This document shows, piece by piece, positions 42,317 through 57,915 of a DNA stretch of 64,000 nt. A program made the translations under genes and the position numbers. The notes below the pieces were generated by a model. The model had not been told where the DNA came from, ran no database searches, and saw only the letters and a program-made list of their open reading frames with translations. Origin of the DNA: Aromatoleum anaerobium (GTDB lineage Bacteria; Pseudomonadota; Gammaproteobacteria; Burkholderiales; Rhodocyclaceae); NCBI RefSeq assembly GCF_012910705.2, contig NZ_WTVG02000040.1:1178001-1242000 (forward strand), given 5' to 3'. Positions within the stretch are counted from its first letter, which is position 1. Every line of letters starts with the position of its first letter.

Positions 42317-42374
42317 TTTTCAATGTATTGCAAGTAAATTTCGGGTCTCGCCCGACAACTGGCACGGTCTCTGC
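42317..42374 (+). promoter_or_regulatory. Sigma-54 promoter with IHF-like site ahead of the GG-peptide genes
   Basis: TGGCACGGTCTCTGC at 42360-42374 matches the sigma-54 consensus (TGGCAC-n5-TTGC) except C for T at one position, with GG and GC correctly spaced. Thirty-five bases upstream, TTTTCAATGTATTG (42317-42330) fits the IHF consensus WATCAAn4TTR with one mismatch. Transcription should begin near 42386, where a hairpin TCGAGC-n10-GCTCGA (42385-42406) lies at the 5' end of the RNA. The same arrangement recurs at 57858-57915 on the minus strand. Confidence 0.75.
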
Positions 42375-42446
42375 GATAGGTCTGTCGAGCGCGCGAAAGT
42401 GCTCGATGCAAATCCAACCCGTAACAGAGCTCTCAGGAGAACGACC

Positions 42447-42728
42447 ATGAAATCCAGCCTGATCATCAAGGACCTGTCCCTCGACAAAGCCCTCGATCGC
42501 AAAGCCATGTCGTCGGTTCGCGGCGGCGTCGGCAACCAGGCCAACGCGACTCAGCAGGGGAACTTCCAGGAAATGTTTGCTCCGGTGGCGGTCGCCAACG
42601 GCGCGGACTTCGGCGGCAGCGGCCCGGTGAATTTCCAGGTCACGTCCAAGCCGACCCAGGACGCGTGGAACGACGCCGACAACACGAACAAGATCCGCTA
42701 TTCGCACTACTACCCCTACGCCGCGTAA
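42447..42728 (+). CDS. Double-glycine leader peptide 1
   Basis: 93 residues: a 27-residue leader (SLIIKDLSLDKALDRK, AMSSVRGG) with hydrophobic residues at -12 (Leu), -7 (Met) and -4 (Val) and GG at -2/-1, the pattern cut by C39 peptidases; then a 66-residue mature part rich in Asn, Gln, Ala, Gly without Cys (QANATQQGNFQEMFAPVAVA, GGSGPVNFQVTSKPTQ), ending in an aromatic His/Tyr tail HYYPYAA. Ribosome site AGGAGA 8 bp upstream. First gene after the sigma-54 promoter. No named family recognised. The C39 exporter is encoded at 46372. Confidence 0.85.
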   Translation: MKSSLIIKDLSLDKALDRKAMSSVRGGVGNQANATQQGNFQEMFAPVAVANGADFGGSGPVNFQVTSKPTQDAWNDADNTNKIRYSHYYPYAA

Positions 42729-42741
42729 TACCGACGAGCCC

Positions 42742-42766
42742 GGCGGAGGCGCCGCCAGCCTCCGCC
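42742..42766 (+). promoter_or_regulatory. Intercistronic hairpin after peptide gene 1
   Basis: Perfect 9-bp stem GGCGGAGGC / GCCTCCGCC with a 7-base loop, 13 bp after the stop, no T-run. Equivalent hairpins follow peptide genes 2 and 3. More likely an RNA stabiliser, processing site or partial attenuator than a full terminator. Confidence 0.5.
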
Positions 42767-42812
42767 AGCCTCTGCCGGATCGATACCTCACCAACCTCGC
42801 AGGAGAACCATC

Positions 42813-43085
42813 ATGAACTCGACTCTGATCATCAAGGACCTGTCCCTCGACAAGGCGCTCGATCGCAAGGCGATGTCCGCGGTACGCGGCGGCTTCTTCG
42901 ATCAGGCCAATGCCACCCAGCAGGCGAACGGCCAGACGATGACGGCGCCTGTCGAAGTCGCCAACTTGGCCAACTTCGGCGGCAGCGGCCCGGTGAATAT
43001 GCAGGTCACGTCCGAGCCGACGCAGTACGCATCGAACGACAGCTACAGCAAGAACAAGATCGGCTATCCGCACTACTACTGGTAA
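42813..43085 (+). CDS. Double-glycine leader peptide 2
   Basis: 90 residues; leader of 27 residues nearly identical to peptide 1 (DLSLDKALDRKAMSAVRGG), then a 63-residue mature part FFDQANATQQANGQ, NFGGSGPVNMQVTSEPTQ and a tail IGYPHYYW. It is a clear paralogue of peptides 1 and 3. Ribosome site AGGAGAA. Predicted substrate of the C39 exporter in the locus. Confidence 0.87.
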   Translation: MNSTLIIKDLSLDKALDRKAMSAVRGGFFDQANATQQANGQTMTAPVEVANLANFGGSGPVNMQVTSEPTQYASNDSYSKNKIGYPHYYW

Positions 43086-43096
43086 TAGCGACGAGC

Positions 43097-43125
43097 CTGG
43101 CGGAGGCGACGACAGTCTCCGCCAG
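43097..43125 (+). promoter_or_regulatory. Intercistronic hairpin after peptide gene 2
   Basis: Perfect 9-bp stem CTGGCGGAG / CTCCGCCAG with an 11-base loop, 11 bp after the stop. Flanking sequence (GACGAGCC before, GGATC/GGATCAA after) is shared with the hairpin after gene 1, so the whole gene-plus-hairpin unit was duplicated. Confidence 0.5.
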
Positions 43126-43177
43126 CTTCCGACGGATCAATGCCTGTTTGCCAAACCAACGTTTCAGGAGAACTACC

Positions 43178-43459
43178 ATGAATTCGACTCTCACCATCAA
43201 GGATCTGTCCCTCGACAAGGCCCTCGACCGCAAGTCCATGTCCGCCGTCCGCGGCGGCTTCTTCGATCAGGCCAACGCGACTCAGCAGCAGAACTTCCAG
43301 TCGATGTTCGCTCCGGTGGCCGTCGCCAACGGCGCAAACTTTGCCGGCAGCGGTCCGGTGATCATCCAGGTCGACTCGATGCCGACGCAGGTGGCATCGA
43401 ACGACAGCGACAGCAAGAACCGCAACCTCTTCGGCCACCTCTTCGGCGGCATGGCCTGA
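43178..43459 (+). CDS. Double-glycine leader peptide 3
   Basis: 93 residues; leader as in peptides 1 and 2 with KSMSAVRGG, mature part FFDQANATQQQNFQSMFAPV, NFAGSGPVIIQVDSMPTQ, and a different tail NLFGHLFGGMA. Conserved core positions between the three paralogues are QANATQQ, SGPV, QV-S-PTQ and ND. Ribosome site CAGGAGAA. Confidence 0.87.
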   Translation: MNSTLTIKDLSLDKALDRKSMSAVRGGFFDQANATQQQNFQSMFAPVAVANGANFAGSGPVIIQVDSMPTQVASNDSDSKNRNLFGHLFGGMA

Positions 43460-43470
43460 CGACCCCGATC

Positions 43471-43501
43471 CCGGTGGCGGCCTCGACACGGCCTCCACCG
43501 G
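43471..43501 (+). promoter_or_regulatory. Intercistronic hairpin after peptide gene 3
   Basis: Stem CCGGTGG / CCACCGG with an inner GCC/GGC pair block, 11 bp after the stop. The sequence differs from the previous two hairpins while the pairing is kept, which argues that the structure matters. Confidence 0.45.
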
Positions 43502-43531
43502 ATTCGAGAAAAGCTGCACCGGAGGCACATC

Positions 43532-43822
43532 ATGGCTGCCATCACCGTCAAGGACCTGCGGACCGACCTTACCCTGGACCGCAAGACAATGTCCTGCGTC
43601 AATGGTCGGGGAGGCGCGCCGTGGGTCTATGGATGGATAAGCCCTTATATCGGGCACGCGTCGACCCGCTTCGGCGCCGTCACCAATTTTTACCAGACCA
43701 ACAACATCTTCGTCGCGGATCAAATGAACAATCAGATCCAGGTGATCGACATCGACAATTCGGCTGCCAATGCGGCCATCAACGTCGCCGCGACCCAGAC
43801 AGCCATCAACTTCAAGCGGTAG
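43532..43822 (+). CDS. Double-glycine leader peptide 4 (divergent)
   Basis: 96 residues. The leader AAITVKDLRTDLTLDRKTM is recognisably the same family, but the processing region reads SCVNGRGG, shifting the GG two residues further from the conserved Val than in the other peptides; a Cys also occurs in the leader. The mature part (about 68 residues) is aromatic near its start (WVYGWISPYIGH) and Asn/Ala-rich at the end (IDNSAANAAINVAATQTAI). Ribosome site CGGAGG. Same orientation and spacing as the others. Confidence 0.78.
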   Translation: MAAITVKDLRTDLTLDRKTMSCVNGRGGAPWVYGWISPYIGHASTRFGAVTNFYQTNNIFVADQMNNQIQVIDIDNSAANAAINVAATQTAINFKR

Positions 43823-43985
43823 ACGCCGCGGTGATGTGCGACCGGAGCATCACCGCACGCGGCGGCGGAGGCCTTGCGGCTTCCGTCGCCACCGCGGCGA
43901 TGCCGCTCCGGACAGGTCGCGCCGGTGACCTATACTGGGGCATCGGGCGATCGTCATTCCAACCACGAATCTCGAGGAACACACC

Positions 43986-44177
43986 ATGGCCACCATAGTT
44001 ATCAGGGACTTGCCGGAAAACACGGCGCTCGACCGCGAGGCAATGCGGGCGATCAGCGGAGGCGCCCGCCTGGGCGGACGTTCGAGGGGCGGGCGCGCAG
44101 CACCCCGCGCAGCTTTTCGCCCCGCTGCGGTGGAACAGGCACCGCGCCGCGCCGTGCCGACCCTGCTGTTCCAATAG
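43986..44177 (+). CDS. Double-glycine leader peptide 5, arginine-rich
   Basis: 63 residues. Leader TIVIRDLPENTALDREAM then RAISGG keeps Leu -12, Met -7, Ile -4 and GG. The predicted mature peptide of 37 residues has eight Arg and one Glu (ARLGGRSRGGRAAPRAAF), so it is strongly basic, unlike peptides 1-4. No Cys. It precedes the PP2C gene by 78 bp. Confidence 0.75.
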   Translation: MATIVIRDLPENTALDREAMRAISGGARLGGRSRGGRAAPRAAFRPAAVEQAPRRAVPTLLFQ

Positions 44178-44255: not shown

Positions 44256-45020
44256 GTGCCCCCTGCCGACCGGATCCGCTGGACCTCAGCGGCCCGCTGC
44301 CACGTGGGCCTGGTCCGCAATGTCAACGAGGACGCCTTCCTCGACCGCCCCGAGCGCGGCATGTGGGTTGTCGCCGACGGCATGGGCGGGCATGACGCGG
44401 GCGAGCTGGCGAGCCGCATGATCGTGTCGGCGATCGACGGTCTCGCGCCGTGCGCGGACCTGACGAGGTTCATCGCCGCGGCGCGACAACGCCTGCAGGC
44501 CGTCAATCGCCAGCTTCGCGCGGAAGCGGCCATGCGCGAAGTCCCGATCATCGGCAGCACCGTCGTCGTCATGCTCGGCTGGGGGCCGTTCTGCGCGTAC
44601 CTGTGGGCCGGCGACAGCCGCATCTACCTCTATCGCGCCGGCCGGCTGATGCTGCTGAGCCACGACCACAGCCACGCCGAGGAGCTCCGTGCGCGGGGCC
44701 TTGTCGACAGCGAAGCGCTCGCGTCCGCGCAGAACCTGGTCACGCGCGCGGTCGGCGCCCTCGACACGCTCGAACTCGACGAAGGCTCGATGCCGGTCGT
44801 CGACGGCGACATCTTCCTGCTGTGCAGCGACGGCCTGACGAATTACGCGAGCGAGCGGGACATCGCCAACGCGCTCGCTGCGGGCGACTGCCCGCAGGCG
44901 GCGGACACGCTGGTCGAGCTCGCGCTGAAAGGCGGCGGGCGCGACAACATCACCGCGGTGGTCGTGCGCGCCGAAGATTCCTGCAGCGCCGACATGACGA
45001 TGCTCAACCCCGCACTGTGA
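44256..45020 (+). CDS. PP2C-family Ser/Thr protein phosphatase
   Basis: 254 residues from a GTG start. Metal-binding motifs of bacterial Stp/PppA phosphatases: RNVNEDAFL, WVVADGMGGHDAGELAS, LLCSDGLTNYAS and GGGRDNITAVVV. No membrane segment. It should reverse phosphorylation by the kinase at 58306, with the FHA proteins as readers; that pairing is inferred from their common locus. It is convergent with the sigma-54 activator gene. Confidence 0.93.
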   Translation: MPPADRIRWTSAARCHVGLVRNVNEDAFLDRPERGMWVVADGMGGHDAGELASRMIVSAIDGLAPCADLTRFIAAARQRLQAVNRQLRAEAAMREVPIIGSTVVVMLGWGPFCAYLWAGDSRIYLYRAGRLMLLSHDHSHAEELRARGLVDSEALASAQNLVTRAVGALDTLELDEGSMPVVDGDIFLLCSDGLTNYASERDIANALAAGDCPQAADTLVELALKGGGRDNITAVVVRAEDSCSADMTMLNPAL

Positions 45021-45026
45021 CGGGGT

Positions 45027-45055: not shown

Positions 45056-46375
45056 TCAGCGGCCCTCGTCGCCGCGGGACGGCGGGCGGTGGCGGAAGTC
45101 CTTCGAGCGGATGCCGTGTTTCTTCAGCAGCGTCTGCAGGTGTGAGCGGTTCATGTCGCAGCGCCGCGCCAGCTCCGCGACGGTGCCGCCGACCTGCTGC
45201 AGGCCCCGCTCGAGGAACAGCCTCTCGGCCTCATCGCTGGCGGCACGTTTTGCGTCGCTGAGCGATATCGCGGCTGCCGTCGCGGCCGACGCGTCGCTCG
45301 CAGCCGGCAGCGCGGCCGCCGCATTTGCCGGTGCCGACCGCGTCGCATCGGGGCGGATATCGGCAGGCAGATGCTGCAGGTCGGCGGTCTCCCCGGCCAG
45401 ACAGGAGACGCGGTAAATCATGTTGCGCAGCTCCCGTATGTTGCCGGGATAGGGATAGTCCAGCAGGAACTCCCGCAGCCGCGGCGTCATGCGGACCGGG
45501 CGGCGCTTGAGCGCTGCGGCGGCCTCGTCGCCGAAGAACGCGAACAGCAGCGGGATCTCGTCGCGGCGTTCGCGCAGCGGCGGCAGCGTCACGTGGATGA
45601 CGCCGAGGCGATAGAACAGGTCCTCGCGGAACCGGCCTTCTTCGCTCAGGCGGCGCAGGTTGCGGTTCGTCGCCGCGACGATGCGGGTGTCGACGGCGAT
45701 CGGCTCGTCGGAGCCGACGCGCTGGATCTCGTGCGATTCGAGCACCCGCAGCAGCTTCACTTGCCCGGACAGCGGCAATTCGCCGATCTCGTCGAGGAAG
45801 ATCGTGCCGGTGTGCGCGCTTTCGAACTTGCCCTTGCGATCGCTCACCGCGCCGGTGAACGCGCCCTTGCGGTGGCCGAAAAGCTCGGACTCCAGCAGGT
45901 TGTCGGGGATCGCGCCGCAGTTGACCGAGATGTAGGGCTTGTCGGAGCGCGAGCCGTTGGCGTGGATCACTTTCGCCATCAGCTCCTTGCCGGTGCCGCT
46001 TTCGCCGTCGATGAGGACCGGCAGGTCGGTCGGCGCCGCCTTCTCGGCGATTTCGAGCGCCTCCAGGAGCTGCGGGTTGTCGCCGAACGCGCCTTCGAAG
46101 ACGAAGCTGCGCTCGAGCAGCGCCCGCCGCCGCGCGCCCGGCGTACGCTCGACGCGCACGCTTTCGGCCGCGGCCGCCTCGACGAAGCGCTCCTTGTGCG
46201 ACAGCTGCATCACCTCGTCGCGCACCGCGTTGGCCTGCCGCAAGAGCTTCTCGATCTCGGGCCGCGCGAGCGTCGGCGCCCAGCGCAGCGTCGAGCGCAG
46301 GATCTCGATCTTCTCGAGCAGCCCGGCGTACGAAATCACCGCACTGCCGCGCAACCCCGGAGTCAGGATCTTCAT
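45056..46375 (-). CDS. Sigma-54-dependent transcriptional activator (no receiver domain)
   Basis: 439 residues starting at ATG 46375, overlapping the transporter stop by 4 bp. An N-terminal helical region of about 90 residues lacks a receiver, GAF or FHA signature; the AAA+ domain has Walker A GESGTGKE (124-131), the sigma-54 contact loop GAFTGA (171-176), Walker B GTIFLDEIGELP and the ATNRNLRRL arginine region; the C-terminus is a Fis-type helix-turn-helix (AELARRCDMNRSHLQTLLKK). It is the obvious activator of the sigma-54 promoters at 42360 and 57872. Being last in the minus operon suggests positive autoregulation. Confidence 0.93.
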   Translation of the reverse strand: MKILTPGLRGSAVISYAGLLEKIEILRSTLRWAPTLARPEIEKLLRQANAVRDEVMQLSHKERFVEAAAAESVRVERTPGARRRALLERSFVFEGAFGDNPQLLEALEIAEKAAPTDLPVLIDGESGTGKELMAKVIHANGSRSDKPYISVNCGAIPDNLLESELFGHRKGAFTGAVSDRKGKFESAHTGTIFLDEIGELPLSGQVKLLRVLESHEIQRVGSDEPIAVDTRIVAATNRNLRRLSEEGRFREDLFYRLGVIHVTLPPLRERRDEIPLLFAFFGDEAAAALKRRPVRMTPRLREFLLDYPYPGNIRELRNMIYRVSCLAGETADLQHLPADIRPDATRSAPANAAAALPAASDASAATAAAISLSDAKRAASDEAERLFLERGLQQVGGTVAELARRCDMNRSHLQTLLKKHGIRSKDFRHRPPSRGDEGR

Positions 46376-49300
46376 GCCGCCGCCAGCTGCTTCTGCACCA
46401 GTTGGTAATACATGCCGCGCCGCTCGACCAGCTCGTCGTGGCGCCCCTGCTCGACGATGGCCCCTTCGTACAGCACCAGGATCTTGTCGGCGCGCATGAT
46501 CGTCGACAGCCGGTGGGCGATGACGACCGCGGTGCGCCCGGCGAGGATGTCGTGCATGTTGTTGATGATGTTGCTCTCCGACTGCGTGTCGAGCGCGGAA
46601 GTCGCCTCGTCGAACACCAGGAGGCGCGGATCGTGGTACAGCGCGCGGGCGATGCACAGGCGCTGGATCTGGCCGCCGGACAGGCCCACGCCGCGCTCGC
46701 CGACGATCTGTTCAAAGCCCAGCGGCATCTTGCGGATGAACGCGTGGGCATCGGCCATGCGCGCGACCTCCTCGATGCGCCGCCGGTCCGGCGCCTCGTC
46801 GCCGCTGGCGATGTTCTCGGCGATCGTGCCGGAGAACAGCAGATTGCTCTGCATCACGTAGCCGACCTGCGCGCGGTAGTAGTCCTTGTCGATCGTCGCC
46901 ATGTCGTAGCCATCGACGACGATGCGCCCGTCGGTCGGCGGGTAGAAGCCGACGAGCAGCTTCGCCAGCGTCGTCTTGCCCGACCCGCTGCGGCCGACGA
47001 TCGCGACGAGCTCGCCGGGCTTGATCTCGAAGCTGATGTTCTCGAGCACGTACGCCGTCTCGTCGCCGCCGTAGCGGAAATACACGCCTTCGAGGGCGAT
47101 GTGCCCCTGCAGGTCCGGCAGCACGACGCGCGAGGCGACCTCTTCCGGGCGCTGCTCCGGCTCCATGTCGAGCACGTCGCCGAGGCGCTCCATCGCGACC
47201 CCGGCGTCATTGACCTGGCTCCACAGCGCGACCAGCCCCATCAGCGGCGCGAGCACGCTGCCCATCAGGGCGTTGAACGCGATGAGCTGCCCGATCGTGA
47301 GCTGGTGCGCCAACACCTGCGACGCGCCGACCCACAGGATCGCGATCGTCGTCGCGGCGTTGAGCACCTGGCTGGCGATGCCGACCAGCACGTTGAAGCG
47401 CTGCGCGCGGTATTGCACCTCGAGCGCCTTCGCGTATTTCTTCTCCCATTTCAGGCGCACCGGGCGCTCGATGCCCATGCCCTTGACCGTCTCGACGCCG
47501 CCGAGCGCTTCCATCAGGAAGGCTTTGGCGTCGGTCGAGGTGGTGAACACTTCGCGCGCGTAGTTCTTGATCTTCGGCGTCACGAGCACCGTCAGCGCCA
47601 TGATCGGGATGACGAACGCGAGCAGCAGGAGCGTCATCTTGACGTTGTAGAGGAACAGGATCGTGAAGTAGATGAACACCATCAGCAGGTTGAGCACCGT
47701 CGTGACCGTCGATTCGGTCAAAAACGCGCGGATCGTCTGGTTTTCCTGGAAGCGCGCGAAGATGTCGCCGGTCTTGCGCTTGGCGAAGAACGAGAACGGC
47801 AGCGACAGCGTGTGCTTGAAGAACTGCGACATCATCGCGAAGTCCATGTTGCGCACCATGAAGTTCGCGAGAAACGCCCGAATGCCCGACATCAGCAGCG
47901 TGAAGAGATTGGTGATGACGAGTCCGGCGATCAGGAGGTGCAGCAGGCTGACGTTCTCGTGCACGATCACGCCGTCGAGGATGTTCTGGATGATCAGCGG
48001 CGGCACGATGCCCAGCACCTGGATGACGAAAGTCGCCATGACGAGGTGCGCGAGGATCTTCTTGTACGGCCGCAGGTACGAAACAAATCGCAGCCACGGC
48101 GAGCGCGACACCGTCAGCTGCGCGAGATTCTGCCCCGGCGTGAACAGCAGGCAGGTGCCGCTCCAGCCGCGCTCGAACTCTTCGATGGCGATCTTCCTGA
48201 AGCCGACGGCCGGATCGGCGACCCACACCTGCCGCTTCGAGACGCCATACACGACGATGTAGTGGTAGCCCTCCCAATGCACGATGAACGGCAGCTCGAA
48301 GCCGAGCAGCGCATCGAACGTGCACTGCACGCCGCGCGTCGTGAAGCCGAGCGCTTCGCCGGCGCGCGCGAGGCTGTCGAGCGTCGCGCCCTGCGTCGTC
48401 ACGTTCGCGAGCTCGCGCAGCTTGCCGAGCGTCATCGGGATGTCGTAGTGGCGGCAGATCATCGCCAGGCACGCCGCGCCGCAGTCCATTTCCTCGGCCT
48501 GCTCGACGAGCGGGAAGCGCCGGATCAGCCGCTCGCCGAGCTCCGGCTTCGACTGCAGGTCGAGCATGACGCGCAGGTTGCGCCGTTCGGCGAGCTTTTT
48601 CTGCCGCTGCAGCTCGCGTTCGACGAAGCGGATGCGCTCGTCGAGCACCTCGCGCAGCTTCGGATTGCGCTCGAGGATCTGGTGGACGGATTTCTCCGGG
48701 ATCACCAGCAGCGTCGTGTCGACGGTCGCGACGACCGAGGCCGGCTGTTCCTGGCGCATCAGGCACGCTTTCTCGCCGAAGATCTCGCCGTGGCCGAGCG
48801 TCGCGAGCGGGTACTCGGTGCCCTGCTCGCTGCGCACGACGCGCACTTCGCCCTGGCGGACCACGTACAGGCGGCGGTCGTCGCGCGCATCCTGCTTGAG
48901 GATCTCCCGGCCGGCCGCAACGCGCTTGACGCCGACGCTGCGCACCAGCTCCTCGAGTTCGGCCTTATCGACCTTGCCGCGCAGATCGAACAGCCGCGCG
49001 ACGACGCCGCCGGCCGAGCCGATCGCGACATAGCTGGTGACGAACGCCTGCGCCGCCGGGTTCTTCGCGAGGACCGGCTCGAACGCCTGGCGCGGGATCA
49101 GCAGCAGCTCGGTCTTCGTCGACGCGCGCGCCGAGAATTCGTGCCGGTACTCGCGCAGCATCGCCATCTCGGCGACGGTCTCGCGCGCCTTGCGCACGCC
49201 GAGGCTGATTTCCTTGCCGTGCTCGTCGGCGAACACCCGCACGGAGCCTGCGCGGATCACGAACACGCCGTCGGCAGGCTCGCCGGCGTTGCACACGGTT

Positions 49301-49437
49301 TCGCCGAACGCGAGGAAACGCGGCTGGGCCTGCCCGGCGAGGTGATCGAGTTCGTCGCGCGTGAACGGCGACAGCAGCTCCACCGACGACAGGAAGTCGG
49401 CGAGGGAATCGAGTTTCGGTGGGGCGTCGGTGGACAT
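46372..49437 (-). CDS. C39-peptidase ABC exporter with two cyclic-nucleotide-binding-like domains
   Basis: 1021 residues from ATG 49437 (GAGGTG site; a GTG two codons earlier is possible). Order: two cNMP-like domains (about 15-140 and 150-275), peptidase C39 (about 305-440) with Gln313, catalytic Cys319 in MDCGAACLAMI, His392 in YHYIVVYG and Asp408 in VADPAVG, six membrane helices, and the ATPase with Walker A VGRSGSGKTTL (about 810), LSGGQIQRL (about 922) and LLVFDEATSALD. All catalytic residues are present, so it should cut GG leaders and export the mature peptides. HetC and PteB of cyanobacteria have comparable layouts. Confidence 0.95.
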   Translation of the reverse strand: MSTDAPPKLDSLADFLSSVELLSPFTRDELDHLAGQAQPRFLAFGETVCNAGEPADGVFVIRAGSVRVFADEHGKEISLGVRKARETVAEMAMLREYRHEFSARASTKTELLLIPRQAFEPVLAKNPAAQAFVTSYVAIGSAGGVVARLFDLRGKVDKAELEELVRSVGVKRVAAGREILKQDARDDRRLYVVRQGEVRVVRSEQGTEYPLATLGHGEIFGEKACLMRQEQPASVVATVDTTLLVIPEKSVHQILERNPKLREVLDERIRFVERELQRQKKLAERRNLRVMLDLQSKPELGERLIRRFPLVEQAEEMDCGAACLAMICRHYDIPMTLGKLRELANVTTQGATLDSLARAGEALGFTTRGVQCTFDALLGFELPFIVHWEGYHYIVVYGVSKRQVWVADPAVGFRKIAIEEFERGWSGTCLLFTPGQNLAQLTVSRSPWLRFVSYLRPYKKILAHLVMATFVIQVLGIVPPLIIQNILDGVIVHENVSLLHLLIAGLVITNLFTLLMSGIRAFLANFMVRNMDFAMMSQFFKHTLSLPFSFFAKRKTGDIFARFQENQTIRAFLTESTVTTVLNLLMVFIYFTILFLYNVKMTLLLLAFVIPIMALTVLVTPKIKNYAREVFTTSTDAKAFLMEALGGVETVKGMGIERPVRLKWEKKYAKALEVQYRAQRFNVLVGIASQVLNAATTIAILWVGASQVLAHQLTIGQLIAFNALMGSVLAPLMGLVALWSQVNDAGVAMERLGDVLDMEPEQRPEEVASRVVLPDLQGHIALEGVYFRYGGDETAYVLENISFEIKPGELVAIVGRSGSGKTTLAKLLVGFYPPTDGRIVVDGYDMATIDKDYYRAQVGYVMQSNLLFSGTIAENIASGDEAPDRRRIEEVARMADAHAFIRKMPLGFEQIVGERGVGLSGGQIQRLCIARALYHDPRLLVFDEATSALDTQSESNIINNMHDILAGRTAVVIAHRLSTIMRADKILVLYEGAIVEQGRHDELVERRGMYYQLVQKQLAAA

Positions 49438-49451
49438 GATCACCTCGGGGG

Positions 49452-50238: not shown

Positions 50239-51612
50239 TCAGCCGCTGATCTGGCGGAACGGATCGAGCGCGAGGTCGATCAGGCGGCGCTCGCGGACGA
50301 CGATCTCCGCGGTCGCCGTCATCCCGTAGCGCACCGGATAGCGCGTGTCGGCGACTTCGTAGTGATCGCGCGAGAGCGTCACGTGGCCTTCGTAGACCGG
50401 CTCCTTGCTCTGCGCGGCGGGCGAAGTCGCCGGCGAGATGAACTCGAGCCGGCCGTCGATGAGGCCGTAGCGCTGGTACGGGAACGCGTTGAACTTGAGC
50501 TTCACCGGCTGACCTTCGCGCAGGAATGCGCGGTCGCGCTCGGCGATGTCCATCTTCAGCACCGCGCGCGCGTCCTTCGGCGCGATGCCGCCGAGCGGCG
50601 TGTTCGCCTGGATCTTGTCGCCGGGCTGCGTCGAGGCGACGTCGGTGATGACGCCCGACACCGGCGCGAGGATCAGCAGGAAGTTGTCCTTGTCGATGTT
50701 CTCGAAGCGGATCCGTTCGGCCGCGTTCGCCGCGAGGCGCGCGGTCTGCAGCTGCAGCCGCAGCTTGTCCTCTTCGTTCGCGATTTCGCGCGCCGCCGCG
50801 TCGTACTGGATGCGCAGCCGCGTCAGCTCCTGGTCGCCGCTTTCGAGCTCGACCGTCGCCCGCGCGGTTTCCTGGCTCAGCCGGAAGTCCAGTTCGCCGA
50901 GCCGCGACTGCGCGACGCGCAGCGCATTTTCCGCCGCCAGATACGCGCTCTTCTTCGCTTCGACCTGCAGCTCCGACACCCCGCCGCCGCCGGGCAGCGC
51001 CAACAGCCGCTGGAAGCGGTCGAGCTCCAGCCGAGTGCTGTCGCGCATGCGCCGCGCGTTGTCGAGCTCACTGCGCGCCTGCTGCAGCTGCGCGCGCTGG
51101 GCTTCGGCGAGCTTCGTCGTGCCTTCCGCGGTGCGCCGCTCGTGCAGCTGCAGCGCCGCTTCGATCTGCTGCTTCAAGGCCGCGACCTTGCGTTCGAACA
51201 GCGCTTTGCGTTCGGGAAACTGCTTCCATTCCCGCTCGGCGTCCTCGAGCTTCAACTGCGCCTCGAGTGCGTGCGTCGCCGCCTCGACTGCTCCGCGTGC
51301 GTTGAGCCGGGCGAGGACGTCGCCCTGCGACACCGGCTGCCCCGCTTCCATGTAGATGTCGGCGAGCTCGCCGTCGATCGGCGCATAGACGCGCCGGACG
51401 TCCGATTCGGGCGCGAGCACGCCGTGCGCGGTGACGATCACGTCGGCGCGCCCGACGAACGACCAGACCAGCGCGGACAGCACCAGCCCGAGGACGGCGG
51501 CGACGAGGGCGAGGCCAAAGCGCGACGGCTCGGCGATCAGGATCGCGATCCCTTCGGCGCTGTGATCCTCGAGGGCCTCGGTCAGCGGCTTAAGGTGATT
51601 TTCGCTCTTCAT
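50239..51612 (-). CDS. HlyD-family membrane fusion protein
   Basis: 457 residues: cytoplasmic N-terminus, one membrane helix ([21 protein letters not shown]), lipoyl half ([20 protein letters not shown]), long coiled coils (about 110-290), second lipoyl half ([19 protein letters not shown]) and a barrel with [18 protein letters not shown]. This is the type I secretion adaptor linking the ABC exporter to the outer membrane protein at 54167. Overlaps the FHA gene by 23 bp. Confidence 0.94.
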
Positions 51613-54085
51613 CGCTCTGCCCTCCGATCAGCGCCAGCTTGGCCTTGAGCAGCCCCGGCTCCAGCACCCTGTGAAGCTCCTGCAGCGACTGCCGCTGCAG
51701 CTCGGCTTCCGCGTCGATCTCGGCCTGGACCGCGACTGCTTGCTCGCCCATCTGCGTTTTCAGCATCTTGTGGATCCGCGCGCCCTGTCGCGCCGCGGAC
51801 TGCGCCTCGGCGAGCAGCCGGGCCTGCGAGCGGAACGTGCCGGAGATGCCCGATTCGAGCCGCTGCTCGCCGCCGATCCCGCCGGCGCTGCGGTACTGGC
51901 GCCACTGCGCCGCGGCGCGGGCCAGCAGGCCGTTGGCGTGCGCGAGCGCCTGGTCCCGGTAGGCGGCGACGTCGGCCCCGGTCGCGCGGATGAAATAGGC
52001 GTCCTCGCTCTCATCGAGCGAGGCGTGAAATGCCAGCAGCCGCTCGTCGTAGCCCTTGCCGCCGCGCGCCTGCTGCAGTGCGCCGAACTGCTGCAGCACG
52101 GTCTTCTTGCGCGCGAGCTCGGCTGCGGCGACCTCCGCCCACGGCCCCGCGGAAATCTGCTGCAGGCCGGCAAGCGCCTCTTCGCCCCGGCCTTCGCGCC
52201 ACGCGCGGGCGGCCGCCTGGTGCTGGCGCACGACCTCCCCGGAAGGCAGGCGCGTCTCGCCGAGCCTGGCGAAATGCTGGCGGAAAGGCGGCGTCGAAAA
52301 ATGCAGTTTCTCGAGCAGCGCGATCAGCGGCTCGAGGCGGCGCGCCTGCAGCGCCCGGTCGAGCTCGACGAACTGGCGCAGATCCTCGCGCACGGCGTCG
52401 AGGCCGGCGAGCCGCGGGTACTTCCCGGCGTAGTCGTTCAACAACGCGTCGAGCGTCTCGGCGCGGCCGGCGTCAAGTTCGGCCGCGATGCCCGCATTGA
52501 GCCGCTCGATCGCAGCGAGATACACCGACTCGTCGCTTTCGAGCCGGCGCAGATGGGTCAGCACTTCGGCATGGACGTCCCTGAACTCGGGCACGTGCGC
52601 CGCGACGCGGGCGAGCGCGCGCTGGCGGGCGCGGGTATCGGCGTGCCAGCGCTGCAGCAGCGTGCCGATGCGCTCCTCGTCAGCGTAGATGCGGATCGGC
52701 GCGTCCACGCCACCGCGCTCGACGACGAACCGCTCGAGCTCGCCGACCCACTCGAGCTCGGCGAGCAGCGGCTGCGCGTCGGCGTTGTGCGCGGCCTGCG
52801 CCTTCATGTCGGCGACGAGCGCCGCGGCGCGGTCGAACGCGCGCACCTGCAGGTTCCCGACCCACTCGGGGAGCTTCGCCTTCAGCAGCGCCTCGGTGCC
52901 GAGCGCCTGCAGCGCCCCATCGTCCGGATCGCTCGCGAGATACGCGTCGGCGACCGCTGCGGCGCGCGCAAAGTCGCCTGCGGCGACGAGGCGCCCGAGC
53001 TCGCGTTCCGCACTTCCGGCGCGGTAGAAGCCGAACGCGACCGCGACGAGCAGCGCGACGAGGGGAATGCCCCAGCGCAGCATCCGTTTCACCGTCCCTC
53101 GGTCGCCGCCGGCGAAAGCCTTGCCCAGTTCGCGCACGAAGAGCAGGGTCCGGCTGCGCTCCCGCCGCGCCAGCGGCACCGGGCTGCCGGCTTGCGCCGT
53201 CTCGTCATTGACTTCGTCCGGCTGCGGCGGCGGGGAAATGCAGAAGATGTCGAGGAACGAGTCGGGCGCCGCGATGAACATCGTCCTGTCCGGGTTGCCC
53301 GGATCGTCTTCTGCAGCCGCAGCGGCAGGGGTGAATCCGGTCACCGTCGGCTCGGTCTCGGTCTCGGCTTCGTGTTGCAGGCTCACGCGGTACACGAAGT
53401 GATCGCCGCCGAACGCGACGACGTCGCCGTCGTGCAGTTCCACGGCGTGCTCGTCGAGACGCGTGCCGCCGACGAAGGTCCCGTTCGTGCTGCCCAGATC
53501 CTCGATGAACGGCGCGCCGCCTTTCAGGAAGATGTGCGCATGGCGACGCGAAATGTAATTGACCTGATGCGGGTACGCGCTCTTGTAGCGCGCGATGATG
53601 TCGTCGATCTTGCTGATCAGGAACGGGAAGGAGGCAATGACGACCGGTTCGAGCAGCAGGTCGTCGCGCTCGGGGGTCAGCGTCAGGCTCAGGAGCGTCC
53701 CGGCCCGCTGCACTTTCTTCGCCCGCGCCACGAGCCGGACGCGATACGACAGCACGCCGCCGAAGCAGACTTCGTCACCGTCGCGCAGCGCGGAAGGTTT
53801 CTCGCCGACGGCGACACCATTGACGCTCGTGCCGTTCTTGCTGCCGAGGTCGGCGACGTACAGCTCGCGCCCCTCCCAGAACACCCGCGCGTGGCGGCGC
53901 GACAGCTCGGCGACGATCTCCTTATCGTACGTCGCGAACGGCGGCTCGTTGCGCCCGATCGCGAACAGCGACTCCTCGATCAGGATGTCGCCCAGTTCCG
54001 GGCGCGACACCGCCTGCAGGAGCACGTTGCGCTCCTGTCCGGCAACGGTCGGCGTCACGGCGACGAACGCCCCCGCGTCACTCAT
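51590..54085 (-). CDS. Double-FHA-domain inner membrane protein
   Basis: 831 residues. Two FHA domains with the phosphothreonine-binding signature: first about 30-115 ([30 protein letters not shown]), second about 150-240 ([21 protein letters not shown]). A Pro/Glu-rich linker, one membrane helix near residue 345 ([17 protein letters not shown]) and about 470 residues of mostly helical, Ala/Arg/Glu-rich sequence, presumably periplasmic. FHA domains should read Thr-phosphorylated partners made by the kinase at 58306. Located between adaptor and outer membrane genes, it may gate the secretion apparatus. Confidence 0.9.
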
Positions 54086-54166: not shown

Positions 54167-55600
54167 TCAGCGCCGGACATTCGCGACCTCGACGGTCGGC
54201 CAGCCGCCGCCGAGCGCTTTGTAGAGCGTCACCGTGTCGGCGAGAATCTGCTGATGGTTGGCGAGCAGCGCGAGCTGCGCCGCGAGCAGCGAGCGCTCGG
54301 TCTCGAACACTTCGAGCTGGGAGACGAGCCCTTCCCTGAGCTGGGCCTGGATCTGGGCGGCGACGATCTGCAGCTGGTCGATCTGCTGCTGCAGCTCGGT
54401 GCGCTGCTGCCGATGAGCCTCGAGGTTCGTCAGCGCGTTCTCGACTTCCTCGAACGCGGCGATCACGGTGCGCTGGTACTCATGCTCGAAGACTTTGGTC
54501 TGGGCCTCGGTCGTCTTGAGGCGCGCCTTGATGCTCGGATCGAACGCGGGGATGTTGATGCTCGGCAGAAAGCCGAACGTGAAGGATTTCAGCAGGTCGC
54601 CGAGCGCGAAACTCGACGTGCCGCCGCGACCGGTCAGGCTGATCGACGGCAGCTGCGCGAGCCGCGCCTGCCCGACGAGGTCGTAGGCTTCGAGCAGCCG
54701 GAACTCGGCGGCGACGATATCGGGGCGGCGGCTCAGGAGCTCGGAAGGCAGCCCGGCCGGCACCGCCGGGAGCCCGACGCGCTCCTGCAGTTTTCCCGGC
54801 GGCACGGTGAATTCGCCTGCCGGCACGCCAAGCAGCGTCGCCAGCGCGTTGCCGGCGAGGCCGCGGGCGCGCTGCAGTTCGAGCAGGTCGCGGGTCAGCG
54901 CGTTGTTCTCGGCGCGCTGGCGCAGGACCTGCGTGCGGGGCACGAGGCCCTGCCCGAGCATCGCCTCGAACGTCGCGAGGATCTGCCGGCTGCGGTCGAG
55001 CGCGCGCTGCTGCCGGTCGATCTGCTCGTCGAGCTGGAGGATCTGGAAATACGTCGTCGCGACGTCCGAGACCAGCGTCAGATATCCCGCCCGCCAGTCG
55101 GCTTCGGTCGCGTGGAATTCTGCGGTCTGCGCCTGGACGCCTTTCTCGACCTTGCCCCAGATGTCGATGTCCCAGTTGACCTGGGTGCCGAGGTTGAACT
55201 GCTTGCGGAAGCTCTGTCCGGTGCTTTTCTCGAAGCTCGCGCCGGCGCCGACGTCGAGGGTCGGCAGCGCGCCGGCGCGCGCTTCGCCGATCTGCGCCTC
55301 GGCGACCTGGATGCGCGCGGCGAGGATCTTGACGTCGAAGTTGCCGGCGATCGCACGGTTGACGAGCTCGTCGAGGGTCGGATCGCGGAACTCCCGCCAC
55401 CAGTCGGGCGCGATCGTGTCGGCCGCCGACACCGCGGGACGCGACCACGACGCCTTGCCGGGCGTGTCGGGGCGCTGGTATTCGGGCACCTTCACGCCCG
55501 CACAGCTCGCGAGCAGCAGCGCCAGCGAGCCGGCCAGCAACGCCCGCAGCAGCGGCAGGGGCCGCCCGCACGGCCTTGACATCGACATTGGGGAAGCCAT
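54167..55600 (-). CDS. NodT/OprM-type outer membrane factor lipoprotein
   Basis: 477 residues. Signal with lipobox LLLASC (LLRALLAGSLALLLASCAG), then PDWWREFRDPTLDELVNRAI and the duplicated outer membrane efflux domain (DIDIWGKVEKGVQAQTAEFH; RRPDIVAAEFRLLEAYDLVG; LLAAQLALLANHQQILADTV). The frame is open upstream; ATG 55600 gives the proper signal. It is the outer membrane channel of the peptide secretion system by position, distinct from tolC at 33468. Confidence 0.93.
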   Translation of the reverse strand: MASPMSMSRPCGRPLPLLRALLAGSLALLLASCAGVKVPEYQRPDTPGKASWSRPAVSAADTIAPDWWREFRDPTLDELVNRAIAGNFDVKILAARIQVAEAQIGEARAGALPTLDVGAGASFEKSTGQSFRKQFNLGTQVNWDIDIWGKVEKGVQAQTAEFHATEADWRAGYLTLVSDVATTYFQILQLDEQIDRQQRALDRSRQILATFEAMLGQGLVPRTQVLRQRAENNALTRDLLELQRARGLAGNALATLLGVPAGEFTVPPGKLQERVGLPAVPAGLPSELLSRRPDIVAAEFRLLEAYDLVGQARLAQLPSISLTGRGGTSSFALGDLLKSFTFGFLPSINIPAFDPSIKARLKTTEAQTKVFEHEYQRTVIAAFEEVENALTNLEAHRQQRTELQQQIDQLQIVAAQIQAQLREGLVSQLEVFETERSLLAAQLALLANHQQILADTVTLYKALGGGWPTVEVANVRR

Positions 55601-55641
55601 TGCGTCTTCACCTTCCACGGGAAAAGTTCGCGCTCCGCGGC

Positions 55642-57570
55642 CTATGCCGTGGCCCACGCTTTCGATTCGACAAACACCCTGAACAGCCGCGCATCGAGCC
55701 GTCCCGCCCGGCATTCCGCATCCAGCAGATCCAGCGCATGCTCGAGCGATATCGCCTTCTTGTACGGACGATCCCCGGCGGTCAGTGCGTCGTAGATGTC
55801 CGAGATCGTCAGGATGCGGGTCTGGATGCTGATCTGCGCGCCGCGCAGCCCCATCGGGTAGCCGGAGCCGTCGAGCTTTTCGTGATGGCCGTGGGCGATC
55901 GCCGGCACGCCGCCGAGGTCGCGCGTCCACGGGATCAGGATCAGGAACGAATACGAGTCGGCGACGTGCGACTCGATCTGCTTGCGCTCTTCGGCCGTCA
56001 GGCAGCCTTTCGACACGCTGAGCGCCGCGAACTCGCTGTCGCTCAGCAACGGCACGGAAACCCCATCCGCTTCGTCGACCGTGCAGCCGAGGATGCGGTC
56101 GAGCTCGTGCGAGCGCTCGGTGTACGAGATCGCCGGCTCGTTGGCGCGGCGGATCGCGGCGAGGAACTCGTCGAGACGCGCGACCTCCTCGCGCAGCCCC
56201 TGTTCGAGGCGGCGCTTTTCTTCGCGGAACGCGGTGATGCCGAGTTCGCGCTCGCAGTGCAGCTCGGCCAGTTTCCGGTAGGCCTGCCGCTCGAGACACG
56301 CGCACGCGTATTTGAAACGCTGTTCGAGCAGGCGCATCTCGGCGTGGTGGAGCTTCTTCTCCTTGCGCAGCACATGCTCGCGCACGCCCACTTTGCCGAA
56401 GTCGTGCAAGAGCGCCGCGTAACGGATCTCGCGCAGCTGGTCCGCGGTGAACGCGATGCCGCGCAGTTCGGGTTCGTCAGTGCGGTCGACCGCCCGGGCG
56501 AGGTTCTCGGCGTAGTGCGCGACGCGGAACGAGTGCCCGGCGGTCACCGGGTCGCGTTCCTCGATCGCCTGGACCGAGGCGCGGACGAAGCCTTCCAGCA
56601 GGCGCTCAATATCCGAGTACAGCTGGAAGTTCTTCAGCGCGACCGCCATCTCCGCGCACACGCCGGTGAGCATTTCGAGATCCTGACCCTTGAACGCGTA
56701 GGGATCCGAAGACGTGTCGAGCTGGATCAGTCCCAGCACCTCGCCCTCGAGCAGCAGCGGGACGCACATGACGCTCCGGATGTCCTGTGCAACGATCGAT
56801 TCCTGGCAGCCGAAGTGGCGATCCGCCAGCGTGTCGACGGAGAGAATCGACAGTTTCCTGTTTAGCACCTCGTCGACGATAGTGCGAGAAATCCTCAGCT
56901 GCTCCGGGTCCTCGACGGTGCCGTCGCGCCAGCGCGCCGCGACCGGCACCGGCGCCTCGCCTTCGTTCTTCCTCAGCAGGATGAAGGCGCGCTCGGCGCG
57001 CGGAAACAGCTCGAAGATCAGGTTCATGATCTTCTCGGTCAGCGTGGCGGAGTTCGTGACGGCGCCGAGCGCGATGCCGACCTGCGCCATCGCGTGGAGC
57101 TTGCGGATCACCCCCTGCGCGTCGCCGTCCTCGCTCTGCGGCGGAGGTCCCTCGAGTGGCCTGGCATACTGGGTCGCGTCCACCGTCTGCCGGATCACGG
57201 CCGGCGCGCTGTCGCGAGGCGGCACGAGCAGCGAATGGAACGCGAGCTGCGTGGACGAGATCGACAGCTCGTCGCCGTCGTGCAGCGGATGCCAGACGCC
57301 GGGGCGCAAGCGCTTGCCGAGCACGAACGTGCCGTTGAACGAATGCAGGTCCTCGATGAAATACTCGCCGCCGCTCAGGCACACGCGCGCGTGACGGCGG
57401 CTGATGGTGTGTTCGGGGATGCAGAGGAACCGCCCCTCCGCCAGCGAATCCTGCGGATCGCGGCCGATCACCGTTTCGTCGTGAAGGGGGAACACCTCGC
57501 CCGTTGCGGTGACTTCGAGGTACGCGGTCACTGGGCCCCGTGACTCGGGAACGGCCACTGTGTTTCGCAT
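55642..57570 (-). CDS. FHA-GAF-HD-GYP protein (putative cyclic-di-GMP phosphodiesterase)
   Basis: 642 residues from ATG 57570. N-terminal FHA domain (about 25-110: VIGRDPQDSLA, ISRRHARVCL, HSFNGTFVLGKRL), GAF domain (about 165-330: RAERAFILLRKN, VMCVPLLLEGEVLGLIQLD) and HD-GYP domain with HDFGKVGVREH (about 390) and GHHEKLDGSGYPMGLRG (about 565). The metal-ligand and GYP residues are present, so cyclic-di-GMP hydrolysis is likely. A roughly 110-residue insert separates the two HD-GYP halves. First large gene of the minus operon. Confidence 0.93.
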   Translation of the reverse strand: MRNTVAVPESRGPVTAYLEVTATGEVFPLHDETVIGRDPQDSLAEGRFLCIPEHTISRRHARVCLSGGEYFIEDLHSFNGTFVLGKRLRPGVWHPLHDGDELSISSTQLAFHSLLVPPRDSAPAVIRQTVDATQYARPLEGPPPQSEDGDAQGVIRKLHAMAQVGIALGAVTNSATLTEKIMNLIFELFPRAERAFILLRKNEGEAPVPVAARWRDGTVEDPEQLRISRTIVDEVLNRKLSILSVDTLADRHFGCQESIVAQDIRSVMCVPLLLEGEVLGLIQLDTSSDPYAFKGQDLEMLTGVCAEMAVALKNFQLYSDIERLLEGFVRASVQAIEERDPVTAGHSFRVAHYAENLARAVDRTDEPELRGIAFTADQLREIRYAALLHDFGKVGVREHVLRKEKKLHHAEMRLLEQRFKYACACLERQAYRKLAELHCERELGITAFREEKRRLEQGLREEVARLDEFLAAIRRANEPAISYTERSHELDRILGCTVDEADGVSVPLLSDSEFAALSVSKGCLTAEERKQIESHVADSYSFLILIPWTRDLGGVPAIAHGHHEKLDGSGYPMGLRGAQISIQTRILTISDIYDALTAGDRPYKKAISLEHALDLLDAECRAGRLDARLFRVFVESKAWATA

Positions 57571-57680
57571 TCCCCACCCTCCCGCGTGCGCCGGACGATC
57601 GCTTAACTTCGACTCGTGATGGAAATAGCGGTTCCGGGCAAGCGGGGCCGCGCCGCGGGGCAGTCCCGCCCGGGTTATCG

Positions 57681-57782
57681 TCAAAACGCCTGTCCGCCCT
57701 GACAGCCGCCACGCACCCCGGCCATCGCGCTGCGGTCCGGTTCTTCGGTCACGGACAGGTCGCTGATCGTCAGGGTTTTCAT
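57681..57782 (-). CDS. Double-glycine leader peptide 6 (33 residues, tiny core)
   Basis: Short gene on the minus strand: ATG at 57782, TGA at 57681-57683. Leader KTLTISDLSVTEEPDRSAM then AGVRGG keeps Met -7, Val -4 and GG; Pro replaces Leu at -12. The predicted core is only CQGGQAF. Ribosome site AGGAGA 8 bp upstream. Its promoter and 5' leader repeat those of peptide 1, which makes a chance open frame very unlikely. It leads the minus-strand operon of the exporter. The short core with a single Cys could be a signal peptide, or the gene may be a truncated relic that keeps the promoter. Confidence 0.75.
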   Translation of the reverse strand: MKTLTISDLSVTEEPDRSAMAGVRGGCQGGQAF

Positions 57783-57857
57783 GGTGGATCTCCTGTGAGG
57801 TCTCTGTTACGGGTTGGATTTGCGTCGAGCACTTTTCGCGCGCTCGACAGACCTATC

Positions 57858-57915
57858 GCAGAGACCGTACCAGCTCACCAGATGCGCTCGGTAAAGCACT
57901 ACAAATGATTGAAAA
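57858..57915 (-). promoter_or_regulatory. Sigma-54 promoter with IHF-like site ahead of peptide 6 and the exporter operon
   Basis: Minus strand TGGTACGGTCTCTGC (57872 to 57858) is the counterpart of the promoter at 42360. TTTTCAATCATTTG begins at 57915, again exactly 35 bases before the promoter. From GGTACGG to the peptide start the two regions are almost the same over about 75 bp, including the leader hairpin GCTCGA/TCGAGC (57825-57847). It should drive transcription from peptide 6 through the sigma-54 activator gene. Confidence 0.75.

What the first reader, a model, noticed from the sequence alone, without database searches (positions are those of the whole stretch)
42317..57915. A self-contained secretion locus for a new family of double-glycine leader peptides
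Seen in sequence: six small genes share a leader with LDRxxM-x2-(V/I)-x-GG, matching the -12/-7/-4/-2/-1 pattern of C39-cleaved leaders; between them are an ABC exporter with intact C39 triad (Cys319, His392, Asp408), PPIase, HlyD adaptor and outer membrane lipoprotein. Known: C39 exporters cut such leaders, and the cyanobacterial EbfG/PteB (biofilm) and HetC systems pair GG-peptides with cNMP-containing C39 exporters. Inference: this is a betaproteobacterial peptide secretion system, possibly for biofilm, signalling or competition. The mature parts match no family I know.
Basis: partly seen in the sequence, partly recalled or inferred. Interest (0 to 1): 0.93.

Follow-up and report, generated by a model that had tools for sequence, protein, structure and literature searches.

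The report
Phospho-controlled secretion system for small peptides
Many soil and water bacteria carry an apparently undescribed machine that seems to cut and export a family of small asparagine- and glutamine-rich peptides, under the control of its own gene switch and protein kinase; the peptides look more like surface or matrix building blocks than toxins.

Summary
The finding is real and larger than reported. The window (an Aromatoleum-type genome) holds five intact double-glycine-leader genes plus one decaying copy, beside a C39 ABC exporter with two cNMP domains, PPIase, HlyD adaptor and outer-membrane lipoprotein. The locus reaches about 62.3 kb and includes a sigma-54 activator, Ser/Thr kinase, PP2C phosphatase, two FHA proteins, an FGE-fold and a DUF4399 protein. 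In the 80 best relatives the activator is always found and 71 show leader peptides in the stretch held. Peptide and exporter searches hit the same genomes (7 of 199 in the family, 3 of 399 in the order, own genome included). Ten further exporter genomes without a peptide in the stretch held all have matches elsewhere; 0 of 7 with only a distant cNMP-C39 exporter do. Sigma-54 boxes precede 61/90 class A and 53/58 class C genes (0/197 control regions), and 12 of 14 scattered peptide loci. Mature parts are Q/N-rich, charge-poor, without a database match; the genes tested are under purifying selection. Best reading: a sigma-54- and probably phosphorylation-controlled type I peptide secretion system. 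A matrix or fibre role is favoured, not shown. No earlier description was seen in the searches made.

The parts
42360..42375 (+). sigma-54 -24/-12 box TGGCACGGTCTCTGCG, 87 nt before pep1
   Evidence: scan score 10.9 of 12.2; similar element before pep6
42383..42408 (+). 5' UTR inverted repeat/hairpin near the expected transcription start
42447..42728 (+). pep1, 93 aa, leader ...LDRKAMSSVRGG
   Evidence: dN/dS 0.27 against G100 orthologue
42813..43085 (+). pep2, 90 aa, leader ...LDRKAMSAVRGG
   Evidence: dN/dS 0.25
43178..43459 (+). pep3, 93 aa, leader ...LDRKSMSAVRGG
   Evidence: dN/dS 0.18
43532..43822 (+). pep4, 96 aa, class C peptide (APWVYGWI..., Q/N-rich), atypical GR then GG site
   Evidence: dN/dS 0.20
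43986..44177 (+). pep5, 63 aa, class D basic peptide, leader ...LDREAMRAISGG
   Evidence: dN/dS 0.21
44256..45020 (+). PP2C Ser/Thr phosphatase, catalytic motifs intact
   Evidence: Pfam PP2C_2 over cut-off; NCBIfam Stp1 172.2 bits, below cut-off 230; motifs
45056..46387 (-). sigma-54 enhancer-binding activator, GAFTGA intact, no receiver domain matched
   Evidence: Pfam Sigma54_activat 2e-69
46372..49443 (-). ABC exporter: two cNMP domains, C39 peptidase, TM domain, ATPase
49452..50204 (-). parvulin-type PPIase, no signal peptide seen by eye
   Evidence: Pfam Rotamase 45.3 bits, cut-off 21.7; TIGR04500 98.2 bits, below cut-off 180
50239..51612 (-). HlyD-type periplasmic adaptor
   Evidence: Pfam HlyD_3 over cut-off; TIGR01843 165.8 bits, below cut-off 208.65
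51590..54085 (-). protein with two FHA domains and one apparent TM segment
   Evidence: Pfam FHA, two stretches; TM read by eye
54167..55570 (-). NodT-type outer-membrane lipoprotein
   Evidence: TIGR01845 298.5 bits over cut-off 210.05
55642..57570 (-). FHA-GAF-HD-GYP protein, HD and GYP motifs intact
57681..57782 (-). pep6, 33-codon remnant of a class A peptide gene
57857..57872 (-). sigma-54-like box TGGTACGGTCTCTGCG before pep6
   Evidence: score 9.7, under the threshold of 10.2
58306..60369 (+). Ser/Thr protein kinase; C-terminal DUF4384 match is just under its cut-off (25.5 vs 27)
   Evidence: Pfam Pkinase; motifs
60425..61585 (-). FGE-sulfatase-fold protein (PvdO/SUMF1-like), signal sequence read by eye
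   Evidence: Pfam 1.2e-57; PvdO best PDB hit; homologue in 56 of 80 loci
61489..62322 (+). DUF4399 protein; true start probably near 61.9 kb
   Evidence: Pfam 1.9e-35 at residues 188-276; homologue in 61 of 80 loci

Best explanation
A dedicated type I (peptidase-containing ABC transporter, PCAT) secretion system for GG-leader small proteins. Proposed working: (1) a locus-encoded sigma-54 activator switches on peptide promoters, in the locus and at scattered sites (inferred from boxes plus activator). (2) The precursors are kept soluble by the PPIase (inferred), docked by their leader on the C39 domain, cut after GG and driven through ABC-HlyD-NodT to the outside (inferred from intact triad, leader pattern and co-occurrence). 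(3) The Ser/Thr kinase, perhaps helped by the FGE-fold protein as sensor, and the PP2C phosphatase set a phosphorylation state read by the FHA proteins and so gate the activator or exporter; the cNMP domains add a nucleotide-type signal (inferred). (4) Outside, the Q/N-rich, charge-poor class A/B/C peptides most likely assemble as a surface or matrix material (favoured among functions, about 0.45). The confidence below is for steps 1-2, the secretion system itself.
For: Exporter domains and triad. Leader pattern: 159 peptides in 80 loci against 0 in two shuffled sets. Activator in 80/80, PPIase 79/80, PP2C 70/80, HlyD 68/80, 2xFHA 68/80, OMP 66/80 loci within the stretches held. Exporter and peptide presence identical in 199 family and 399 order genomes (Fisher 4.5e-13 and 9.5e-8, not corrected for kinship). 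10/10 exporter genomes without a peptide in the stretch held have matches elsewhere; 0/7 with only a distant exporter do. Sigma-54 boxes 61/90 class A and 53/58 class C, against 31/4500 and 28/2900 shuffles and 0/197 upstream regions of other locus genes. Two RpoN-domain hits in the genome. Purifying selection: five window peptides against G100 0.18-0.27, class C pN/pS 0.12-0.13. Mature N+Q 20-24% against 5.8% in eight locus proteins, charged 5-10% against 25%, for classes A-C. A short helix (17-23) in the leader in both structure models.
Against: No cleavage, export or phosphorylation was measured. pep4 lacks GG at the canonical position. Boxes are absent before the 4 class B and 5 class D genes, and in the window only pep1 passes the threshold. 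The control regions lie mostly inside an operon, so they are not ideal. Class D is basic and charged, not Q/N-rich. Structure models are poor: pep4 pLDDT 40.5, a class A peptide 58.8, neither with a strand; hydrophobic-moment scans show no clear beta pattern and class C leans alpha. No Pfam match to curli or other amyloid repeats. Singleton cargo has quite different mature parts. The PDB hit of the peptide profile to a GG-leader bacteriocin precursor has E 0.32, chance level. HlyD, FHA and OMP genes are not in the stretch held in 12-14 of 80 loci.
Confidence: 0.85

Rival explanations
1. The peptides are antibacterial (class II microcin/bacteriocin-like), used in competition, with the kinase pathway acting as an attack or danger switch.
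For: GG leader plus C39 exporter is the classic bacteriocin route; multiple diverging paralogues; a kinase/FHA/PP2C set is also used to trigger type VI secretion (PMC10482370 passages).
Against: In the scattered peptide loci I saw by eye no recurrent neighbour that could be an immunity gene, though frames under 110 codons were not listed and no homology search of neighbours was made. Class C has invariant positions and is under strong purifying selection. Few charges and Q/N richness are unusual for microcins (recalled).
Confidence: 0.2
2. The peptides are extracellular signals (peptide pheromones) and the kinase/FHA/sigma-54 set is the response pathway.
For: Self-contained regulation; a HetC-type cNMP-C39 exporter is tied to cell differentiation (PMC10986499 abstract and Discussion); short diverse singleton cargo.
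Against: Up to 18 family matches per genome with mature parts of about 63-71 residues in classes A-C is a lot for a signal; no dedicated peptide receptor was identified.
Confidence: 0.2
3. The window's pep1-3 are radical-SAM-modified peptides (RiPPs), the neighbouring radical SAM protein (40600-42021, -) being their maturase.
For: The radical SAM gene is next to and divergent from pep1, and found in the three genomes of 8 tested that share pep1-3.
Against: Those three genomes are close relatives; G137 has one in-frame TAG in the gene while keeping pep1-3; no homologue within the stretches held of the 80 named loci, L069 with similar leaders among them.
Confidence: 0.05

Closest known systems
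EbfG1-4 / PteB of Synechococcus elongatus (biofilm)
   Same: Several small GG-leader proteins exported with the help of a C39 exporter whose domain plan is said to resemble HetC; in print EbfG1-3 are amyloid-prone and the EbfG proteins are needed for biofilm (passages of PMC4997328 and PMC9981879).
   Different: Other phylum; sequences not compared here. No kinase, PP2C, FHA or sigma-54 part, nor dispersed peptide genes, appeared in the passages read.
HetC of Nostoc PCC 7120
   Same: cNMP domain before a C39 exporter (PMC10986499, abstract and Discussion).
   Different: That paper describes one cNMP domain, no GG peptide and no membrane-fusion gene near hetC; here two cNMP domains, adaptor and peptides.
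Type VI secretion threonine-phosphorylation pathway (PpkA, PppA, Fha, TagQRST)
   Same: Kinase, PP2C, FHA proteins and an FGE-fold protein in one locus (PMC10482370 passages; that TagR has an FGE-type fold is recalled).
   Different: No type VI sheath gene (VipB) in this genome; tied to a type I exporter. Orthology with PpkA/TagR not tested.
NHLM/NHLP bacteriocin export
   Same: C39 exporter plus HlyD for leader peptides.
   Different: Below the curated cut-offs: TIGR03796 567.4 vs 853.3, TIGR03794 68.6 vs 156.2.
Colicin V / class II microcin export (CvaB-type)
   Same: Leader positions -12, -7, -4, GG (recalled); PCAT plus adaptor.
   Different: No toxin-like or immunity gene recognised; own NodT lipoprotein and regulation; TIGR01193 494.9 vs 523.85, just below, and TIGR01846 (HlyB type) 609.8 vs 725.55.

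Membership tests
PCAT (C39 peptidase-containing ABC exporter) | C39 domain with Cys-His-Asp fused to ABC membrane and ATPase domains | tested here: met
PCAT (C39 peptidase-containing ABC exporter) | Cognate substrates with GG leader | tested here: met
   pep4 atypical
PCAT (C39 peptidase-containing ABC exporter) | Cleavage after GG and export | not testable with these tools
   needs secretome or peptidase assay
Type I secretion, tripartite | HlyD adaptor and outer-membrane channel | tested here: met
   Pfam HlyD_3 over cut-off, TIGR01843 under it; TIGR01845 over cut-off
NHLM/NHLP system | TIGR03796/TIGR03794 above curated cut-off | tested here: not met
Sigma-54 regulon | -24/-12 boxes at near-fixed distance plus activator with GAFTGA | tested here: met
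   not before class B and D genes
Sigma-54 regulon | Loss of transcription without RpoN or activator | not testable with these tools
   -
Type VI secretion TPP | Type VI structural genes in the genome | tested here: not met
   VipB 0 of 1 genome; other type VI genes not searched
Type VI secretion TPP | Orthology of kinase, FGE and FHA proteins with PpkA, TagR, Fha | not tested
   only domain-level likeness
EbfG/PteB system | Homology of peptides or exporter at sequence level | not tested
   only passages of papers read
Functional amyloid (curli/Fap) | Curlin or other curated amyloid repeat match | tested here: not met
   8 peptides against Pfam at E<=5
Functional amyloid (curli/Fap) | Fibre formation, dye binding | not testable with these tools
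   composition compatible, not proof

The most novel reading that the evidence does not exclude
One locus encodes the exporter, the sigma-54 activator and a kinase/phosphatase/FHA switch for a genome-wide set of secreted small proteins (up to 18 family matches in one genome), many on their own sigma-54 promoters. This 'secreted peptide regulon' builds a previously unknown extracellular fibre or coat in Burkholderiales and Rhodocyclales, and its export is gated by threonine phosphorylation as in type VI secretion.
Probability: 0.35. Interest if true: 0.88.

Novelty: new variant of a known kind. Interest (0 to 1): 0.74.

Why it matters
It ties three possible control layers (sigma-54 activation, Ser/Thr phosphorylation with FHA readers, cyclic-nucleotide-type domains) to one peptide exporter, and gives a leader and promoter signature by which much of the secreted peptide set of a genome can be listed. 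It occurs in tractable soil bacteria such as Paraburkholderia xenovorans LB400 and a Cupriavidus necator strain, so the model can be tested directly. The peptides are short and easily missed in annotation.

Tried and rejected
Considered and set aside: (1) NHLM/NHLP system: below cut-offs. (2) Type VI secretion accessory module: no VipB in the genome. (3) RiPP maturation by the neighbouring radical SAM: not linked outside three close relatives. (4) Known amyloid repeat families: no Pfam match for 8 peptides. (5) The second C39 hit of the genome is a stand-alone secreted peptidase beside beta-rich repeat proteins, FapD-like by my reading, not an exporter. (6) GG peptides in the distant cNMP-C39 loci L048-L057: none that I accepted in three pattern scans (one search listed a few stray frames), nor by the peptide model in their 7 genomes. 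(7) A link to the Azoarcus BH72 density signal: the C39 hit of that paper was weak and the mutant supernatants still induced pilAB (PMC3262810 passages); dropped.

Led nowhere or incomplete: both structure models are too poor for a fold search, so none was made. In the class A model residues 61-100 reach block means of 68-77 with no helix or strand assigned, i.e. an extended chain; that is compatible with stacking but shows nothing. The hydrophobic-moment test was inconclusive. The class A selection aggregate failed in the script and was not repeated. The plasmid hits carry no annotation for the stretch in that collection. Three distant loci did not enter the exporter tree (36 of 39 asked). 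A hairpin like that of class A was not clearly enriched in class C (11 of 54 against 89 of 1080 shuffles at stem 6 or more) or in scattered genes (2 of 18 against 19 of 360).
Full report
What is in the window. The strict leader pattern occurs at four places, all in small genes: pep1 42447-42728, pep2 42813-43085, pep3 43178-43459, pep5 43986-44177. Forty Markov shuffles of the window give 0.4 hits on average and at most 3. pep4 (43532-43822) has the leader with G-R at the canonical -2/-1 position and G-G two residues on. pep6 (57681-57782, minus) is a 33-codon frame. In two sister genomes the same site keeps a sigma-54-like box but has TTG for ATG and lacks a stretch of the body with the GG region, so I read pep6 as a decaying class A gene. 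PPIase, HlyD and a NodT-type outer-membrane protein are there.

What the finding does not mention. Between and beyond lie a PP2C phosphatase, a sigma-54 activator with GAFTGA, a protein with two FHA domains, an FHA-GAF-HD-GYP protein, a Ser/Thr kinase with a sub-threshold DUF4384 match, an FGE-sulfatase-fold protein and a DUF4399 protein. Catalytic motifs of kinase, phosphatase, HD-GYP and activator are intact. The genome has two hits to the RpoN activator-interacting domain and no type VI sheath protein. It has one other C39 hit, a stand-alone secreted peptidase.

Relatives. An exporter alignment (A2) found 280 stretches that encode a relative (tblastn E<=1e-3) in the GTDB genome collection; the best 80 were kept, at 79-89% identity, in Aromatoleum, Noviherbaspirillum, Herbaspirillum, Paraburkholderia, Caballeronia, Cupriavidus, Trinickia, Paucimonas and others. 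The other 200 were not seen. Within the stretches held (flanks up to 10 kb): activator 80 of 80, PPIase 79, PP2C 70, HlyD 68, 2xFHA 68, outer-membrane protein 66, DUF4399 61, FGE-fold 56, kinase 4, and HD-GYP protein 4 with any hit, 3 near full length. Larger stretches from G811, G717, a Caballeronia megaplasmid and a Burkholderia stagnalis replicon show the kinase in the same neighbourhood. The exporter tree of 36 rows places the window with Aromatoleum diolicum and A. toluolicum. The system is sparse: a same-genus genome, G167, has neither exporter nor peptides.

Peptide family. A leader pattern finds 159 peptides in 71 of these 80 loci, against 0 in two shuffled sets. By my sorting rules they fall into class A (92), C (58), D (5) and B (4). 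The class A consensus (56 rows, three of them class B) ends F.A.Q.I.Q.QN..N.NGNN.AF...I.S.V.P.Q.A.N.IN; class C (40 rows) reads GGGGAPWVYGWIQPYV...NNFYA.QMINQFQ.VDV.N. The window's pep1-3 align with the class A/B core only loosely. Mature parts of classes A (90 distinct), B (3) and C (47) have 20-24% N+Q and 5-10% charged residues, against 5.8% and 25% in eight locus proteins; class D (5) is different at 5% and 24%. No Pfam or NCBIfam family reached its cut-off for the peptides submitted (6 window peptides; 4 window and 4 relatives' peptides). The class A profile's only PDB hit is the GG-leader precursor of carnobacteriocin B2 at E 0.32, chance level though apt. The five intact window peptides against their G100 orthologues have dN/dS 0.18-0.27; pep4's leader alone gives 0.89 on 7 changes, and pep4 against the more distant G044 copy 0.44. 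Class C in 12 Paraburkholderia-group loci (66 pairs) has pN/pS 0.12 for leader and 0.13 for mature part.

Co-occurrence. The exporter query (E<=1e-30) hits 7 of 199 family genomes, the window's own among them, and the peptide model A3 (E<=0.001) hits the same 7. In 399 order genomes both searches hit the same 3, again with the window's own. Fisher tests give 4.5e-13 and 9.5e-8, but the genomes are related, so these are not independent trials. The tool scored at most 26 (family) or 13 (order) peptide candidates per genome, so a lone peptide could be missed. Nine of the 80 loci had no peptide by pattern. Eight of their genomes were searched and all eight have peptide matches (1 to 18), one (G957) with a single match. 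The ninth, L065, lies on a contig of the same length (92,169) as G003's exporter contig, and G003 has 7 peptide matches on other contigs. Two class-level exporter genomes, G394 and G361, also have matches, which makes the 10 of 10. Two of the 18 matches in G958 have a stop inside. In contrast, 0 of 7 genomes whose only exporter match is distant (E 7e-66 to 2e-53) have the peptides. The peptide model was not run over all 369 class genomes, of which 10 had an exporter match at E<=1e-50 and 3 of these, the window's own included, a close one.

Promoters. With a weighted -24/-12 score (my own weights, threshold 10.2 of 12.2) the 200 nt upstream hold a box in 61 of 90 class A genes (2 of 92 dropped for short flanks) and 53 of 58 class C genes. 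Letter shuffles give 31 of 4500 and 28 of 2900, and 197 upstream regions of other locus genes give 0; many of those lie inside an operon, so they are a lenient control. Distances cluster at about 80-101 nt (A; outliers 64, 112, 195) and 56-92 nt (C; outlier 41). Classes B (0 of 4) and D (0 of 5) have none and usually follow another peptide gene. In the window only pep1 passes (10.9); pep6 scores 9.7 and pep4 9.4.

Scattered cargo. Leaders also occur away from the locus: three related 73-aa proteins and one 62-aa protein in family genomes, with sigma-54-like boxes readable by eye, and up to 18 matches per genome in exporter carriers. Of 18 further stretches fetched, 16 hold pattern-detected peptides. 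Two of these (L150, L162) lie beside kinase or PP2C genes and so belong to the main locus. In 12 of the other 14 the first peptide has a box over the threshold 78-100 nt upstream, including all five singletons L157-L161; L147 and L156 do not (my count from the output). Neighbouring frames looked unrelated from place to place, judged by eye on frames of at least 110 codons.

5' hairpin. In the mRNA leaders of class A genes an inverted repeat CGAGCA-N-TGCTCG sits about 10 nt after the -12 element, near the expected start. A stem score of 6 or more occurs in 35 of 62 against 73 of 1240 shuffles; class C (11 of 54 against 89 of 1080) and scattered genes (2 of 18 against 19 of 360) show little. In a set of 69 class A and scattered genes 34 have stem score 5 or more near that place against 4.8% of shuffles, with some compensating changes such as CGAACATG/CATGTTCG. 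It may be an mRNA-stabilising hairpin or a DNA site.

How it works. Shown by sequence: a complete PCAT-type export set with cognate leaders, found in the same genomes, and sigma-54 boxes on its cargo genes. Inferred: cleavage after GG, export through HlyD and NodT, PPIase as cargo chaperone, and phosphorylation and nucleotide gating. Function is open. I favour a surface or matrix material because of the composition, the multiple co-regulated paralogues, and the published analogue EbfG, whose members 1-3 are amyloid-prone and whose proteins are needed for biofilm (passages of PMC9981879 and PMC4997328). Against it: no confident structure (pLDDT 40.5 for pep4, 58.8 for a class A peptide), no beta signature, and no curated amyloid repeat.

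Known or new. The kind (PCAT with GG peptides) is known. In the open library I saw no description of this system. Searches listed only the top 20, 20 and 10 of 63, 862 and 816 papers. 'double-glycine' with 'Paraburkholderia' returned 0 papers. Subscription papers and preprints are not held. The type VI parallel (kinase, phosphatase, FHA, and FGE-fold sensor by recall) rests on domain likeness and on passages of PMC10482370, not on orthology.

Noticed in passing
window 42383-42408 and UTRs of class A genes in L058-L137: Inverted repeat/hairpin at the expected 5' end of class A peptide mRNAs, with some compensating changes; not clearly enriched in class C.
   Followed up: partly
L138, L139, L141 (73 aa) and L140 (62 aa): Leader-bearing proteins far from the locus; three share a conserved mature part, and sigma-54-like boxes can be read by eye upstream of all four.
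   Followed up: partly
L157-L161: Five singleton peptide genes with unrelated mature parts (two with cysteines), each with its own sigma-54 box.
   Followed up: partly
L048-L057: Distant cNMP-C39 exporters (about 30-39% identical over aligned pieces) in other families, several beside an activator, PPIase and HlyD, with no recognised leader peptides: possibly a sister system with another cargo.
   Followed up: partly
L008: Stand-alone secreted C39 peptidase beside glycine/asparagine repeat proteins and a protein with LRGGF, reminiscent of Fap functional-amyloid operons (likeness recalled).
   Followed up: no
window 40600-42021 (-): Radical SAM protein divergent from pep1, present in 3 of 8 related genomes tested, with one internal stop in G137.
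   Followed up: partly
L143, L144: The locus also lies on megaplasmid-sized replicons of Caballeronia sp. SBC2 and Burkholderia stagnalis.
   Followed up: no
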